This document shows, in pieces, positions 10,597 through 34,000 of a stretch of 64,000 nt of DNA; within the stretch, counting starts at the first letter, position 1, and each line of letters starts with the position of its first letter. A model generated the notes under the pieces. It was not told where the DNA came from and did no database searches. It saw only the letters and a list, made by a program, of their open reading frames with translations. The position numbers were made by a program, and so were the translations under genes. The stretch is from Fasciolopsis buskii. Lineage: Eukaryota > Platyhelminthes > Trematoda > Plagiorchiida > Fasciolidae. The stretch covers positions 307,877 to 371,876 of the forward strand of contig LUCM01001514.1 of NCBI GenBank assembly GCA_008360955.1. Direction: 5' to 3'.

Positions 10597-11815
10597 TTGC
10601 TGAAGAACGTGGAGGGCAACTGTCAAAGGCTAGAGCGTTGGGCTGAGCATTTCAAGGATCAGTTTGTCTGGCCACACGCGGACGTTTTTATTGGAAAGTC
10701 TGCAGTTGCATATCCTTGGGATGTGTCACTTGAACCCACCCCCCAATGGAAGTGGAAGTGCAGAAGAAGTAAAGAAGAGGGGAAAAGCTGCCGGTCCCGA
10801 CGAAATTCCCCCAGTTCTTTTCAAATTGGGTGGAGAAGCTCCGATGAAATCACTTACCTCCTTGCTTTGTGATATTTGGAACGAGGAGCGTATCTCGCTA
10901 TCGTGGGGTGAGTCACTGATCATACGCATGTTTAAGAAGGGTACACGGAGTGACTGCAGAAATCATCGTCGGATTAGTTTAATTCCGATAGTTACTAAGG
11001 TGCTAGCTTTGATAATGCTGCGCCGTTTGACACCGATTTGCGAGAGTACTATCCGCGAACAACAGGCCGGATTTCGGCCAGGTCGAGCTTGTATGGACCA
11101 GATATTCATACGTCGACAGTTACTCAAGCGCGGCACACGCACCACTGCCCTACGATCGTAGTCTTTCCCGACTTGAATGGCGCGTTTGGCTCAGTGGATC
11201 GACCAGCACTATTCAGTGCTCTCCACCGGAAGGGCATACCAACGATGTTCGTGAAACTATTGCGAGCATTGTAAATGCATACATATGGCCTCATGGGGTA
11301 TACGGTGAAATAACTAGTTCATTCAAAACGCGTAGCGGCGTTCGATCAGGGTGTCCTATATTTCCATTCTTGTTCAGCTTTGTCATGGACGAGGTGATGG
11401 ACGATGCTTTAGAAGGTCTCCAGAAGGTAGAAGTCTAATTTGGAAACGGAGGAAAGCTGTGTAATCTAGAATAGGTAGATGACATCGTGTGCCTTTTCGA
11501 ATACGCGGATCATGCAAAACGTGCACTAGACAGATTCCGAAGGTTTGCAGCTCGGTTTGGCATTTGCCTTGCACTTTCGAAATTCAAATTGCTGTTACAG
11601 GAATAGACAGCAGTGGTCTCGAACTTGATACTGAATGGCGACGAAAAAAACCTTGTCGATCGTTTCACCTACCATGGTATCTGCTTGTCGAGCGATGGTA
11701 AATCAGTAGTAGAGTTGAACACTAGTATACCTAAGGATCAATCGGCTCACGCTGGACTGAAGCATTTCTGGAGTGAGCTGATATTTGTTTGGATTTGATA
11801 CGTTGCATCTGCTCC
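10597..11815 (+). pseudogene. decayed LINE reverse transcriptase (trematode non-LTR retrotransposon)
   Basis: The remains of a non-LTR retrotransposon polyprotein, read through several frameshifts. In order I see a linker (RLERWAEHFKDQF), the segment GKAAGPDEIPPVLFKLGGEA, IFKKG-type and NHRRISLIPI motifs, QQAGFRPGRACMDQIF, and motif A as FPDLNGAFGSVDR after a frameshift near 11150. Motif B is GVRSGCPIFPFLFSFVMDE near 11340. Motif C is present, but its tyrosine codon is a TAG stop at 11472-11474 (E-stop-VDDIVC). The thumb region (FGICLALSKFKLL, NLILNGDE) follows, with decay to about 11815. The upstream endonuclease half is absent, so this is a 5'-truncated, dead copy. Its peptide resembles the element at 15.1-17.0 kb. 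Clade (CR1-like or RTE-like) cannot be settled by eye. Confidence 0.92.
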
Positions 11816-24610: not shown

Positions 24611-24784
24611 CCTGTCGAAACTAAATAAGGTGTTTTAACTAGAGCACTTTATCTTGAAGTGTTGAACAACTCATCTAACCCACAAGGTAATAGAACGATC
24701 TGAACGTCGCATGACCCACGGCAGACCGGCGACTAATTCCTCAGTTTATACGTCCTTCGAAACGGTTTACACATCCATGATGAC
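24611..24784 (+). repeat. left arm of a 174-bp inverted repeat pair
   Basis: This segment reappears in reverse complement at 26748-26921 with about five mismatches, roughly 97 percent identity by eye. Its 3' part contains an open frame, VIERSERRMTHGRPATNSSV then YTSFETVYTSMM, identical in sense to the other arm except at two residues. After the conserved block the frame continues here with unrelated residues and stops near 24837. The outer ends begin CTGTCGAAA. I see no clear target-site duplication. Confidence 0.8.
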
Positions 24785-26721: not shown

Positions 26722-26845
26722 CGGCATCTGTGGTGGAGGTTTTACTGTTCATCATGGATGTGTAAACCGTTTCGAAGGACGTATAAACTGAGGAATTAGT
26801 CGCCGGTCTGCCGTGGGTCAAGCGACCTTCAGATCGTTCTATTAC
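26722..26845 (-). CDS. candidate exon inside the right arm of the inverted repeat
   Basis: The minus-strand frame runs VIERSEGRLTHGRPATNSSV, then YTSFETVYTSMMNSKTST, and ends TDA at a consensus donor G|GTGAGT (26721). A weak acceptor, CCACAAG, lies at 26846-26852. The left arm repeats the coding part up to SMM and then departs, so this arm appears to hold the complete exon and the left arm a truncated copy. The peptide is rich in serine, threonine and tyrosine, resembling a cytoplasmic tail. Function unknown. Confidence 0.35.
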
Positions 26846-26921
26846 CTTGTGGGTTAGATGATTTGTTCAACACTTCAAGATAAAGTGCTCTAGTTAAAAC
26901 ACCTTATTCATTTTCGACAGC
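26748..26921 (-). repeat. right arm of the 174-bp inverted repeat pair
   Basis: Reverse complement of 24611-24784. The ATG of the left copy reads TTG here. The pair brackets 1963 bp. It could be an inverted segmental duplication of an exon or, less likely, long terminal inverted repeats of a DNA element, since no transposase is seen between them. Confidence 0.8.
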
Positions 26922-29843: not shown

Positions 29844-30499
29844 CCTTATCAAGAATAAGATCAACATACTTAATGTAACAGAGGTGCCATTTATGTGGTA
29901 GACGGGAGTGAATTAACTATAATGCACTGGTGCAAAGCATTCATGTTCAATTTGTCAGACTGAAATGCCATCTTCTGAAAGGCATTTGACAGAAACTTGA
30001 CGGACCTTGCACAGTTACCTGAATGTACCTTACACAGCAAAACCGTGACATTCAAATAAGCGTGACCAGCCTATTCAAAAATAATGGTAGGTCTTTGGAG
30101 AATGCACAGAGTGAACACTACAGACATAAATGCAGCTCCAGGTGTCCACATTACAGCATAGTGGCTTTCCATTCCCTTTCCTATAAGACTACAGATTTGT
30201 GAATTAGCACCATATGAAATACATTAGATGGCCTTTTTTGTAAGCATCATCTTATATAAAATCGCTGTGGTGCATAGATAGACTGATCATCCACGTATTC
30301 TTCCTGCCATTCCGACGAGATTCTTGTCGCAAACCAATACCGAAGTGTGCAGGTATAAAAACAATTGAGGAAAAAATTTATTAGGTGCACATGACAACAT
30401 AGCCGGTCGTGTGCCTCGGGTGGGCCTTTGTTCTCCTATACAACAAAGAACGTAAATATATTTGAATGAATACATTTTAGTAGTAGGAGATTGAATGTT

Positions 30500-30637
30500 T
30501 ACATGAAATAATTCACCACGTGATATCATCGCTCAACTCACCATAAAGAAACCATGGAAGCACTGTACAGCTGTTTCATCCTTGTTGGGAATCATCAGCA
30601 GTACATATCCACCGCGCCCGAACTGGGACGCGAACCC
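30500..30637 (-). mobile_element. truncated hammerhead-bearing SINE, copy A
   Basis: Minus-strand copy of the element described at 30830-31056. It keeps box B (GGTTCGCGTCC at 30636-30626), the ribozyme core (30604-30560) and the conserved 3' end, but is cut off at 30637 so that the 5' half of the tRNA-like part is missing. Ribozyme details: stem I strand GTACTG pairs with CAGTGC through one G-U wobble; the core CTGATGA and GAAA are intact. The break coincides with the edge of the 58-bp inverted repeat. Confidence 0.75.
30560..30604 (-). ncRNA. hammerhead ribozyme-like fold, copy A
   Basis: Core elements CTGATGA and GAAA are in the correct order, flanked by a 6-bp stem I with one wobble and a very short stem III (ACA/TGT). 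Stem II has a T-T mismatch at the pair next to the core, where active examples have G-C, so activity is doubtful. Same layout as copy B. Confidence 0.55.
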
Positions 30638-30829
30638 ATGATATCACGTGGTGAATTATTTCATGTAAACATTCAATCTCCTACTACTAGAATGTATCAA
30701 GTAATCAAGCTCTGTAGGTCACATCCAAAGCTTTCGTCGTACTTAGGCTACCTGCAGAGAAGTCATCTATCAGTAGGGGTCGATCGCTGTGAGCTAACGG
30801 ACAGTAACCGTGCAAATCAGTGACGGATA

Positions 30830-31056
30830 GGTGCAACATCATGTGGTGAAGTTCAATAGACCGTTCAAAGCCTGCTCGGTGGCGTAATGGCTAAGGTGTT
30901 CGACTCAGAATCGTTCGTCCCGGGTTCGCGTCCCAGTTCGGGCGCGGTGGATATGCACTGCTGATGATTCCCAACAAGGATGAAACAGCTGTACAGTGCT
31001 TCCATGGTTTCTTTATGGTGAGTTGAGCAATGATATCACGTGGTGAATTATTTCAT
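30830..31056 (+). mobile_element. tRNA-derived SINE with hammerhead ribozyme, copy B (SM-alpha-like)
   Basis: The best-preserved copy. 30874-30943 folds as a near-complete tRNA: acceptor strands GCTCGGT/TTCGGGC, anticodon stem CGA/TCG around the loop CTCAGAA (anticodon CAG), and a T-arm with box B GGTTCGCGTCC at 30923-30933. Box A lies in GGCGTAATGGCTAAGG. The hammerhead fold follows at 30955-30999, then a conserved 3' segment ending TGGTGAATTATTTCAT. Polymerase III transcription from the internal boxes would place the ribozyme inside the transcript. The tRNA-plus-hammerhead arrangement is that of schistosome SM-alpha repeats. No element-encoded protein is expected; mobilisation would rely on a LINE or similar machinery. 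Confidence 0.78.
30955..30999 (+). ncRNA. hammerhead ribozyme-like fold, copy B
   Basis: Stem I is GCACTG (30955-30960) with CAGTGC (30994-30999), six perfect pairs. The core CTGATGA is at 30961-30967. Stem II is TTCC with GGAT at 30968-30981, carrying a T-T mismatch at the pair next to the core and then three good pairs. GAAA is at 30982-30985. Stem III is only ACA/TGT with a two-base loop, and the residue before the cleavage point is A (30993) instead of the usual C. The minimal stem III is a known trait of the schistosome ribozymes. The lost G-C pair and the A suggest a weakened or dead ribozyme. Confidence 0.72.
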
Positions 31057-34000
31057 ATTTGAATGAACTTTGGACAAGAGTCACATTTTATGAACCGATG
31101 TCCTTCTGTTAACTTCATCAGTTAATTGACCCTCCCATGATTTTCTAAATTTATTCCCTTGTAATGAGATGGCTGAAAATATTGAAAATTTAGTTGGCCT
31201 AGCTACCTATGTTCGTCATATGTAACCACCATGGCATTTGAGTGCATCTACTGGAAAACACTCATTTGACTGAATGCATACAAAGACTATTATAGTACAT
31301 ATGTGTTTCTTATGCACGCCGCATTACCAACAAGCTAAAAGCAACGGTAATCAATCGATTTCATCACAACATTCGCCCGCAAGTAGGCTACACATCGCAG
31401 TTTATATTAGCTCACCAAAAGAATGGGGCGACCATTCTGATTGAAACATAGGTAACGTTTTGATTGAACATGTCGCAAGTAGACACCGGAATATTCAGGT
31501 ACACTGATCCACTCCCATTCGACTGCAAAGTATAAAAAATATGATGAAAGAATTGCAAAACAGGGACACAGGAAAAATGGCGACTCCAGTCGTTCAATAA
31601 AGACCATCAATATGTAATTCGTGAGTGCGGGGGTGTGATCGCGTCTAAGAATCCCAGATAGGATTCACTGTCGTAGACGGGGATTAAAAAGTGTGAGTTT
31701 TCTTACTGATGTTGCATATTAGCAATATTTGAATGGGGATTCACTTAGCACCATCCAGGATTTTCGCTGGGATTAGTTCCTATTTGTTCGTTATGTAAGA
31801 CATGTCGCAACAGGATTACAGGGGAACTCGCAACAATAACTCCCCAAAGCTATCAGCATGTGGTCTTATATGAAAAGCATTTCTGGTTGGGCTACTGTTA
31901 AGAAACTTAGTAGTCATTGTTGCTTTATGACACAGACGTCATCTCTGCTTGATGGTACCTTGGACTGGCGGTAGTAACCCGGACAGTATCATGGCATACT
32001 AGCATGGGTCGCGGGTGTAAATCCTCCCGAAGCTTGTTTGTTGCCCAACTCCATAACATTCAAAGGACGGCGAACTTGTTTCAATGAAAGAAAAAGAAAA
32101 AGATGCTCTTCCTATAGTTAATTCCTGACTGAAGGGTTTAGTCGTATAGTATTTGAATAAATTACTAATCACTAGACGTTAAAAAGCGAATACGACCTTG
32201 AGTTATACTAGTAAGTCAGTTCCATTGGCCAGTGTGCAACTAGCCTAACGTTGTCTCGTAGTTCATCTTCATATATGAAATCTACCGTGCTTAGTTTTGC
32301 ATTTGGGCATGTAGGTTGCAAATTATCACAATTGCCATAATTTATTGGTTCATCAAAATGACTTCAGTTCTTCAGAGTCTTACATTTGACTGCTGGTACC
32401 TCATCATCAAGTACCGTCACTCCATTAGTCAGACATTGACAGAATCTAATAATTCCGCTTCAACATCTAAACCAACGGTGACAATAACCAGCGGAAATCC
32501 TTTCCATCTTGAACCATGACCTTGAGTTACTATGATACGGTGCTTTATTTGTGTTGATCGCTTGGCATATTTTTCACGGAGCGTGAGTCACAATGATTAG
32601 CTTTTACGGCACTGATTCTCGGGACGACATCAGTTAACATACCGCGTAACATGCAACTGAGGGGGCCAGAGACTATACAACTAATAATTTCTGGTTTAGT
32701 GATTTTCACTAGTTGACAAGAGAAGTCACTAACCGCGGAACATGTTCAATGGCTCGTCAAGGAGGTTACAGTGGTCTAACACTTCTATTTAAACAAGCAG
32801 AGGTAGAATCTCTTTTCAAAAGGCAACTAGTGGGATAAAAATGAGGTTTCTTATAATCTGTTCACCACCCATTTTAGATAAAAACGACTGTGATCTGAAG
32901 ATATTAGCCTCATTCTTACAGGCCACTATGCTCCTCGTAACTCTCGCTTTTCTTCGACAGAAGCATTCTGAAATACACACGGTAAGGAAAAGTACATTCT
33001 TTACCTAAGAGGTTGAATAAATAAAAACATTTTAGAATAATGATAAGTTCCAAATGATAAAACACTGGTTACAGTTTGCTAATTCATGCACCAACACCAA
33101 CTTCAATTCCAATAGACTTTTGAGCACAGGCTGCTCAGCTCATTGGCCAACTGAGAAGGCGTACCAATAAACGAATCATACAAGCGGTTCAGTCAGTTGA
33201 TTACTAACATCAGAACCCGGAAAAAACGAGAACTGGACTATCAAATGTTATTACGACGAAGATGGTGGCAGCAAATGACAACAGAGAATAACTAACTGAA
33301 GGCGCGAACAGCTCAAAATTAAAAGAAGACAGTGGATTTGCTCTGGTGACAACTTGGGCAAAATATGAAGATGAAATTGTCTAGAGCATGACGGATTACT
33401 CTATTAACAATTCATACCTAATGCCTCGTCGATGGAGATCAAATCAATCGAAAAACAGAAAAAATACATGTTTATACCTTATCAGTTATACTTCGTTCAT
33501 TCTACAAACCAAAGACCATGTTAGCTTCGAGATTGGTTAGCAACCAAGTGAATACTTGAGATGGTTCGTTAAGGAATACATTCTTTGGTCAAAGGCACAT
33601 CTGCTCTGAAAAGCTGGAAATCCCCGGGGACGATGACGTCGAACGGGATTCGCGTAAATCTCGTTTTTTAATACTTCTAGAATCTGTTAAACATTCCAAA
33701 GGGACTGCAGAACTCCTGTCTTATTAACGAGTGGCAATGAGTAACTTGTAATCAGTCCGGACTGTGATTAGAAAGTTATTATTCGTGCTCATTGTAGATG
33801 ACGGCACACACGTATCCATCCTAATCGAGCAGATCTCCATCGCATTGTGGAATAGCGTTAAAAAATATCCCCTCCATTAAAACATCTTATCCTAGCTTAA
33901 TTATTTTCCTATGATTGGACATTGTCTGAGATCTTCCCCGTACCATTTAATCGGTTGAGTTTCTACTCCTGAATATAGGATCACTTGATAAGCGCAGACT

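What the first reader, a model, noticed from the sequence alone, without database searches (positions are those of the whole stretch)
30955..30999. Hammerhead ribozyme fold inside a tRNA-derived SINE
In a 45-nt stretch I can place all three stems: GCACTG/CAGTGC, a short stem II, and ACA/TGT. CTGATGA and GAAA occupy exactly the core positions, immediately downstream of a near-complete tRNA-like cloverleaf with both polymerase III boxes. Schistosome SM-alpha repeats are known to combine these parts. This copy differs at two functionally sensitive places: a T-T pair replaces the G-C at the base of stem II, and A replaces C at the cleavage residue.
Basis: partly seen in the sequence, partly recalled or inferred. 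Interest (0 to 1): 0.85.

Follow-up and report, generated by a model that had tools for sequence, protein, structure and literature searches.

The report
Penelope-type jumping element with decayed ribozyme
A short jumping element with a tRNA-like head and a hammerhead-ribozyme fold, repeated thousands of times in one animal genome, carries the double-ended insertion signature of Penelope retrotransposons, which points to the enzyme that moves such elements and suggests that a good ribozyme is not needed for it.

Summary
The hammerhead (HHR) fold at 30955-30999 is real: RF00163, 28.8 bits, E 8e-5, below Rfam's cut-off of 34. A second copy lies at 30560-30604 on the other strand. Both belong to one insertion, 30470-31056, flanked by a 13-bp target duplication. 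The family has a 392-bp unit with a weak tRNA-like head; its HHR core pattern has 3288 exact matches in this 703-Mb genome against 1 for the reversed pattern.

The two "sensitive" changes are the family norm: T.T at 10.1/11.1 and A at 17. Only 2 matches combine G10.1 with C11.1.

The new point is the insertion anatomy. Copies are often joined head-to-head and have two alternative 3' ends, A, or B = A plus 25-37 nt. Of 23 head-to-head insertions with both ends classed, 22 have one of each. That is the published Penelope-like element (PLE) "tail" signature. PLE-type endonuclease frames are abundant here, and the one such insertion inspected shows the same geometry.

Best reading: a Smalpha/retrozyme-like SINE moved by PLE machinery, with a weak or inactive ribozyme. 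No PLE has been matched to it by sequence; activity was not tested.

The parts
30458..30470 (.). left target-site duplication ATATTTGAATGAA (last base overlaps the element end)
   Evidence: exact 13-bp repeat flanking the whole insertion
30470..30502 (-). 33-nt tail: end B of the left arm, copy of 30665-30697
   Evidence: BLAST to the unit, ref2 258-425
30503..30637 (-). left arm, 5'-truncated, inverted copy of 30922-31056 (98.5%)
   Evidence: BLAST
30560..30604 (-). second hammerhead fold, same T.T and A17
   Evidence: RF00163 26.8 bits, E 3.6e-4
30638..30664 (+). 27 nt of the 3' end of a preceding unit, identical to 31030-31056; shows the template was longer than one unit
   Evidence: 27 of 27 identical
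30665..31056 (+). one complete 392-bp unit (right arm)
   Evidence: tandem copies with period 392 in L016
30665..30697 (+). tail sequence GTAAACATTCAATCTCCTACTACTA... which ends the B form when it forms the outer end
   Evidence: end clustering 25-37 nt past end A, 41 classed ends
30874..30944 (+). tRNA-like head; A-box-like 30880-30890, B-box-like 30923-30933
   Evidence: RF00005 18.7 bits, below cut-off 29; boxes read by eye
30955..30999 (+). hammerhead type I fold: core 30961-30967 and 30982-30985, T10.1 at 30968, T11.1 at 30981, A17 at 30993
   Evidence: RF00163 28.8 bits, E 8e-5; family counts
31056..31056 (+). end A, the commoner 3' end of the element (54 classed ends)
   Evidence: end clustering
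31055..31067 (.). right target-site duplication ATATTTGAATGAA

Best explanation
This is one insertion of a non-autonomous retroelement of the Smalpha/animal-retrozyme kind: a 392-nt unit with a tRNA-like head and a type I hammerhead. A Penelope-like reverse transcriptase/GIY-YIG endonuclease made it. Steps: (1) tandem copies are transcribed into RNA of more than one unit (inferred; the tRNA-like head may drive RNA polymerase III). (2) The PLE protein binds the region downstream of the hammerhead and cuts both strands of AT-rich DNA (inferred from the published PLE and from AT-rich duplications here). (3) It starts reverse transcription at two neighbouring internal sites, A and B, 25-37 nt apart, one cDNA on each target strand. 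The two cDNAs stop at varied 5' points and are joined head-to-head (the products are shown; the order of events is inferred). (4) The hammerhead, whose family consensus lacks the pair at the base of stem II, is at best weak, and its cleavage is not needed for insertion (inferred).
For: 88 distinct insertions in L001-L080: 38 head-to-head, 49 single-orientation, 1 mixed. Of the 38, 23 have both outer ends strictly classed: 22 A/B, 1 B/B, 0 A/A (p 3e-6 for a fair choice). A target duplication of 9 bp or more in 13 of 23 against 3.3% in shuffled pairs, mean 78% AT (3 of the 13 are TA-repeat stretches). Close pairs (<1 kb, counted by hand) in the first 100 places of three pattern lists: 13 head-to-head, 1 direct, 0 tail-to-tail; 5, 1, 0; 5, 6, 1; some pairs recur between lists. 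A PLE-type GIY-YIG frame gives 150 matches, all 150 that were scored out of 3598 candidates; near pairs (<3 kb) among them 6 head-to-head, 2 direct, 0 tail-to-tail. The one such pair fetched has arms identical in 254 of 255 bases up to one end, then one arm runs about 50 nt further before (TA)n, and a hammerhead-like motif lies just upstream. Published: two adjacent start sites equal the tail, both strands are cut, HHR mutants still insert in vitro (PMC11167929); inverted pLTR plus 31-bp tail plus duplication (PMC3846280 passages).
Against: The element's 3' end shows no similarity to the PLE-type end inspected (best E 0.24, and that outside the PLE arm), so the helper is not matched. Of the 150 listed matches, 133 have at least one stop inside, often a single TGA that may be the natural end. 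Only one PLE-type insertion was examined for A/B ends; another copy (in L005) diverges about 13 nt before end A. Only 1 of 34 single-orientation insertions shows a duplication of 9 bp or more (null 1.1%). The loci were not a random sample: L001-L028 by similarity to the window, L029-L058 by the HHR pattern, L059-L078 by hand from its list, L079-L080 by the G/C pattern. In one search one close pair is tail-to-tail, and two more (C294, C409) lie about 2 kb apart. RNA and protein were not tested.
Confidence: 0.8

Rival explanations
1. An ordinary tRNA-derived SINE moved by a LINE; the inversions are LINE twin-priming products.
For: tRNA-like head, variable 5' truncation, constant 3' end, target duplications.
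Against: Twin priming on one RNA should give arms that do not overlap (recalled), but here both arms carry the same region (left arm 258-425, right arm 1-392 in the window copy). It does not predict two alternative 3' ends used one each in 22 of 23 insertions. No shared poly-A or simple-repeat tail follows end A in the printed flanks.
Confidence: 0.1
2. A true retrozyme: the hammerhead is active enough, perhaps as a dimer, to release 392-nt units that are ligated to circles, and the circle is the template.
For: Tandem arrays of period 392; arms longer than one unit; the core motifs CTGATGA and GAAA are kept in the consensus; core positions differ less than the rest of the HHR, though not significantly (12 of 272 against 63 of 814, p 0.07); a few copies can pair at 10.1/11.1 (3 A-T and 1 G.T of 96). 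Animal retrozymes give circles of about 170-400 nt (PMC7229834 abstract and Discussion).
Against: T.T at 10.1/11.1 as the family norm; 2 of 3288 core matches with G10.1 and C11.1; 13 of 46 readable copies have a change in the fixed positions of CTGANGA.
Confidence: 0.25
3. Chance resemblance to a hammerhead.
For: The score is below Rfam's gathering cut-off.
Against: Full-length model match, thousands of copies with the pattern and 1 for the reversed control, a hammerhead in the published Smalpha and a hammerhead-like motif near the end of a PLE-type copy here.
Confidence: 0.02

Closest known systems
Smalpha / Sjalpha SINE-like elements of Schistosoma (PMC2770079, PMC8490949, passages only)
   Same: tRNA-derived head, type I hammerhead with a very short stem III, thousands of copies.
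   Different: Unit 392 bp against 335 bp for the Smalpha representative W36.2_W001; the pair at the base of stem II lost as the family norm; a PLE-type double end is not described for Smalpha in the passages I read.
Animal non-LTR retrozymes (PMC7229834 abstract and Discussion; PMC7761336 passages)
   Same: Short tandem units with type I hammerheads, non-autonomous; PLEs were already suggested as movers.
   Different: The 2020 review says the repeats show no motif that reveals the autonomous partner and seem to lack promoters (PMC4918200 passages note a tRNA in the Schistosoma repeats). Here the ends give a signature and there is a tRNA-like head, and the ribozyme's stem II base pair is missing.
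Penelope-like elements, e.g. Poseidon of Anolis (PMC11167929) and Pen2a of Adineta (PMC3846280)
   Same: Head-to-head partial copies, optional 30-40 nt tail on one end, AT-rich target, hammerhead upstream of the end.
   Different: No coding frame in this element (longest stop-to-stop frame 99 aa); no sequence match to the PLE-type end seen here.

Membership tests
Hammerhead ribozyme type I (RF00163) | score at or above Rfam gathering score 34 | tested here: not met
   28.8 and 26.8 bits; best in the genome is another element, 35.4 bits, with 73 of 111921 candidates scored
Hammerhead ribozyme type I (RF00163) | three-stem layout with CUGANGA and GAAA in register | tested here: met
   full-length alignment 1-45
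Hammerhead ribozyme type I (RF00163) | closing pair of stem II (10.1-11.1) | tested here: not met
   T.T in the window copies and in 85 of 96 copies; 2 genome matches with G and C
Hammerhead ribozyme type I (RF00163) | self-cleavage | not testable with these tools
   needs RNA
tRNA-derived SINE (Smalpha-like) | tRNA-like head with A and B boxes | tested here: inconclusive
   RF00005 18.7 bits under cut-off 29, no ARAGORN hit; boxes by eye
tRNA-derived SINE (Smalpha-like) | dispersed copies with target duplications | tested here: met
   13 of 23 head-to-head insertions against 3.3% null; but only 1 of 34 single-orientation ones
Animal retrozyme | tandem units with a type I hammerhead, about 170-400 nt | tested here: met
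   period 392 in L016; hammerhead by layout only
Animal retrozyme | circular RNA made by hammerhead cleavage | not testable with these tools
   no RNA data
PLE-type insertion | head-to-head copies with a tail on one end | tested here: met
   22 of 23 classed head-to-head insertions are A/B
PLE-type insertion | AT-rich target | tested here: met
   duplications 78% AT, 10-bp flanks 69% and 73%, window 59%
Penelope-like element (autonomous) | RT plus GIY-YIG reading frame in the element | tested here: not met
   longest stop-to-stop frame overlapping the insertion is 99 aa; no match to the PLE-type endonuclease in the window
PLE-dependent element | 3' end shared with an autonomous PLE of the genome | tested here: inconclusive
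   no similarity to the one PLE-type insertion read at both ends; other PLE families were not read

The most novel reading that the evidence does not exclude
Hammerhead-bearing SINEs and animal retrozymes are substrates of PLE machinery as a class. The machinery obeys a strict one-A, one-B rule: a paired complex starts one cDNA at each of two adjacent sites, on opposite target strands, which makes the head-to-head product. The hammerhead can be lost as a catalyst while the element goes on to thousands of copies, so its lasting role may be as part of the folded recognition site rather than as a cutter.
Probability: 0.4. Interest if true: 0.78.

Novelty: new variant of a known kind. Interest (0 to 1): 0.62.

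Why it matters
A 2020 review states that animal retrozymes carry no conserved motif that reveals which autonomous element moves them, with PLEs only suspected (PMC7761336 passages; PMC7229834 Discussion; repeated as a proposal in PMC11722881 passages). The double-ended signature found here is such a mark and can be counted in any genome. It also separates ribozyme quality from mobility in a natural family, which fits the in-vitro result that hammerhead mutants of a PLE still insert. The one-of-each rule is a quantitative clue to how PLEs start reverse transcription.

Tried and rejected
Copies in viral contigs: none. A protein search with a translated piece of the element found 3 predicted proteins of unnamed origin at E <= 10; P0001 keeps the amino acids that correspond to T10.1, T11.1 and A17, while P0002 and P0003 each differ in that stretch (my reading of the codons). 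Searching for copies with an intact core to show an active form: 2 pattern matches, neither with a fully paired stem II. Rfam in the genome: 8 listed, of which 7 carry this family's core (six G10.1.T11.1; one, L090, A10.1-T11.1 with C17), none of these 7 over the cut-off; the best, L083, is a different element. A planned test of core conservation by counts was not finished: the control pattern was answered (978 matches) but the exact-core count did not complete. The organism was not identified; trematode is my guess from the likeness to Smalpha, not a result. Papers on the 10.1-11.1 pair: 2 listed, neither opened. That a G-C there matters for catalysis, that A17 is tolerated, how twin priming works, and the A/B box consensus sequences are recalled. 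Ferbeyre 1998, Cervera 2014 and Lunse 2017 are not held. That a PLE signature in hammerhead SINEs is not in print rests only on paper searches in the held library, by listing and the passages named.

Full report
What is there. The 45 bases at 30955-30999 match the Rfam type I hammerhead model from its first to its last position (28.8 bits, E 8e-5, cut-off 34). A whole-window scan at the cut-off lists nothing. A second match lies about 350 bases upstream on the other strand (30560-30604, 26.8 bits). BLAST of the window against itself shows why: 30922-31056 is repeated in reverse at 30503-30637 (98.5%), and 30638-30697 is repeated in reverse at 30470-30529 (98.3%).

The unit. The genome that holds the window has 703 Mb in 6974 contigs. 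A search with 30850-31080 scored 40 of 2956 candidates and listed 41 matches. Laying the fetched loci against the window shows a unit of 392 bp (30665-31056) that also occurs in tandem, e.g. successive copies in L016. The 27 bases 30638-30664 are the end of a preceding unit, so the template of this copy was longer than one unit. The tRNA-like head is weak by model (RF00005 18.7 bits, cut-off 29; no ARAGORN hit).

The insertion. Copies mostly end at 31056 (end A), or 25-37 nt further on inside the next unit (end B, the tail), and start at many points (54 ends classed A, 41 classed B). Among 88 distinct insertions in loci L001-L080, 38 are head-to-head, 49 of one orientation and 1 mixed. Of the 38, 23 have both outer ends inside the strict bounds (A 380-399, B 413-432 on the unit): 22 A/B, 1 B/B, 0 A/A; the other 15 had at least one end outside these bounds. 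The chance of 22 or more of 23 under a fair choice is 3e-6. Single-orientation copies gave 26 A, 8 B and 15 outside the bounds. The window copy is B on the left (30470) and A on the right (31056), with ATATTTGAATGAA at 30458-30470 and 31055-31067. A duplication of 9 bp or more is present in 13 of the 23 against 3.3% of shuffled flank pairs (3 of the 13 are TA-repeat stretches), but in only 1 of 34 single-orientation copies against 1.1%. The loci were not a random sample: L001-L028 were taken by similarity to the window, L029-L058 by the hammerhead pattern, L059-L078 by hand from that list and partly for unusual cores, L079-L080 by the G10.1/C11.1 pattern. A list independent of the hammerhead is the pattern in the 5' module (978 matches): among its first 100 places, 12 close pairs (<1 kb) are 5 head-to-head, 6 direct, 1 tail-to-tail (counted by hand); between 1 and 3 kb it has 1 direct (C305) and 2 tail-to-tail pairs (C294, C409), which I take for separate insertions.

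What it works like. This geometry is described for Penelope-like elements. In Adineta an inverted pLTR and an optional 31-bp tail sit on one of the inverted repeats, with target duplications, and head-to-head is the most frequent inverted arrangement (PMC3846280, passages). In Anolis the purified PLE protein cuts both strands at AT-rich sites and starts reverse transcription at two adjacent internal RNA sites, and the sequence between them is the genomic tail; hammerhead mutants do not affect insertion in vitro (PMC11167929, parts 1-2 of 4 of the text). That paper saw no difference in start site between the two strands; the one-of-each rule here is a statement about single insertions. So I asked whether PLEs exist in this genome. 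The GIY-YIG family gave two matches among 150 scored of 212 candidates, one of them in a 147-aa frame with half a GIY-YIG domain by Pfam. I take that frame for a PLE endonuclease by its look and by what follows; no reverse transcriptase was read beside it. It gave 150 matches, all 150 scored of 3598 candidates; 17 of the listed 150 have no stop inside. Close pairs (<3 kb) among them are 6 head-to-head, 2 direct, 0 tail-to-tail. For one head-to-head pair (C6338) I fetched both outer parts: the arms agree in 254 of 255 bases up to GCGAACAAAC; there one arm stops beside (TA)n, while the other runs about 50 bases further, homologous to L082, before (TA)n. A motif GCA-CTGACGA...GATGAAAC-GT-T-TGC lies just upstream, read by eye as a minimal hammerhead with one extra base after CTGACGA. 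Thus the same order, hammerhead then end A then tail then end B, exists in a coding PLE-type element of the same genome. A further copy, in L005, diverges about 13 nt before end A. The PLE-type end shares no sequence with our element.

The ribozyme. They are the family form. Of 96 distinct copies with the loose core, 85 are T.T at 10.1/11.1, 3 A-T, 1 G.T and none G-C; 90 have A17. Genome-wide, 3288 matches to the loose core contrast with 2 that have G10.1 and C11.1. In 39 arms not chosen by their own core (25 of them cover it), the HHR differs from consensus in 75 of 1086 cells and the rest of the element in 373 of 4717 (p 0.28); the catalytic core differs in 12 of 272 against 63 of 814 for the remaining HHR (p 0.07). 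In the 46 readable copies of a pattern that leaves the eight bases CTGATGAT open (1871 matches in all), 32 keep all eight; 13 have a change at a fixed core position and 1 only at the free position 7; T10.1 is kept in 46 of 46. An earlier count on copies picked for similarity to the window gave lower rates in the HHR (1.2% against 3.4% in the 5' module); I give it little weight because of that choice. So there is no clear sign of selection on the core. That T.T at the base of stem II weakens catalysis is recalled knowledge, not a result here.

Second family. The best Rfam match in the genome (35.4 bits, over the cut-off) is a different element, L083, which also has a tRNA-like stretch directly before its hammerhead and a core with G10.1, C11.1 and C17 (the tRNA-like stretch is read by eye). 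I did not follow it up.

Judgement. Membership: hammerhead type I fold yes by layout, no by Rfam score and by the stem II pair; SINE by dispersal; retrozyme by unit size and tandem form, with circular RNA untested; PLE-type insertion by end structure and target; not itself a PLE. The closest published ideas already suspect PLEs as movers of retrozymes; what is added is a structural mark that can be counted, and a large natural family whose ribozyme consensus is damaged. I put 0.8 on PLE-type mobilisation and less on the claim that the ribozyme is inactive.

Noticed in passing
L083:1420-1560 (G000:C888:33853-33897): A second element with a tRNA-like stretch and a type I hammerhead with G10.1, C11.1 and C17; the only listed match over Rfam's cut-off, 73 of 111921 candidates scored.
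   Followed up: partly
window 24612-24783 and 26749-26920: A 172-bp inverted repeat pair, 97% identical, 2 kb apart.
   Followed up: no
window 10634-11158 (+): Fragment of a reverse-transcriptase frame, RVT_1 E 6.9e-6, below the curated cut-off.
   Followed up: no
P0001, P0002, P0003: Predicted proteins in other public contigs resemble translations of this repeat's reverse strand, so the element seems to have leaked into gene predictions.
   Followed up: partly
G000:C487:243159-244429: Five places of the 5' module in about 1.3 kb, four in one direction at 369-395 bp spacing and a fifth turned round: it looks like a tandem array closed head-to-head.
   Followed up: no
L015:1986-2395: The single B/B head-to-head insertion, with palindromic flanks beside a run of N; possibly an assembly artefact.
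   Followed up: no
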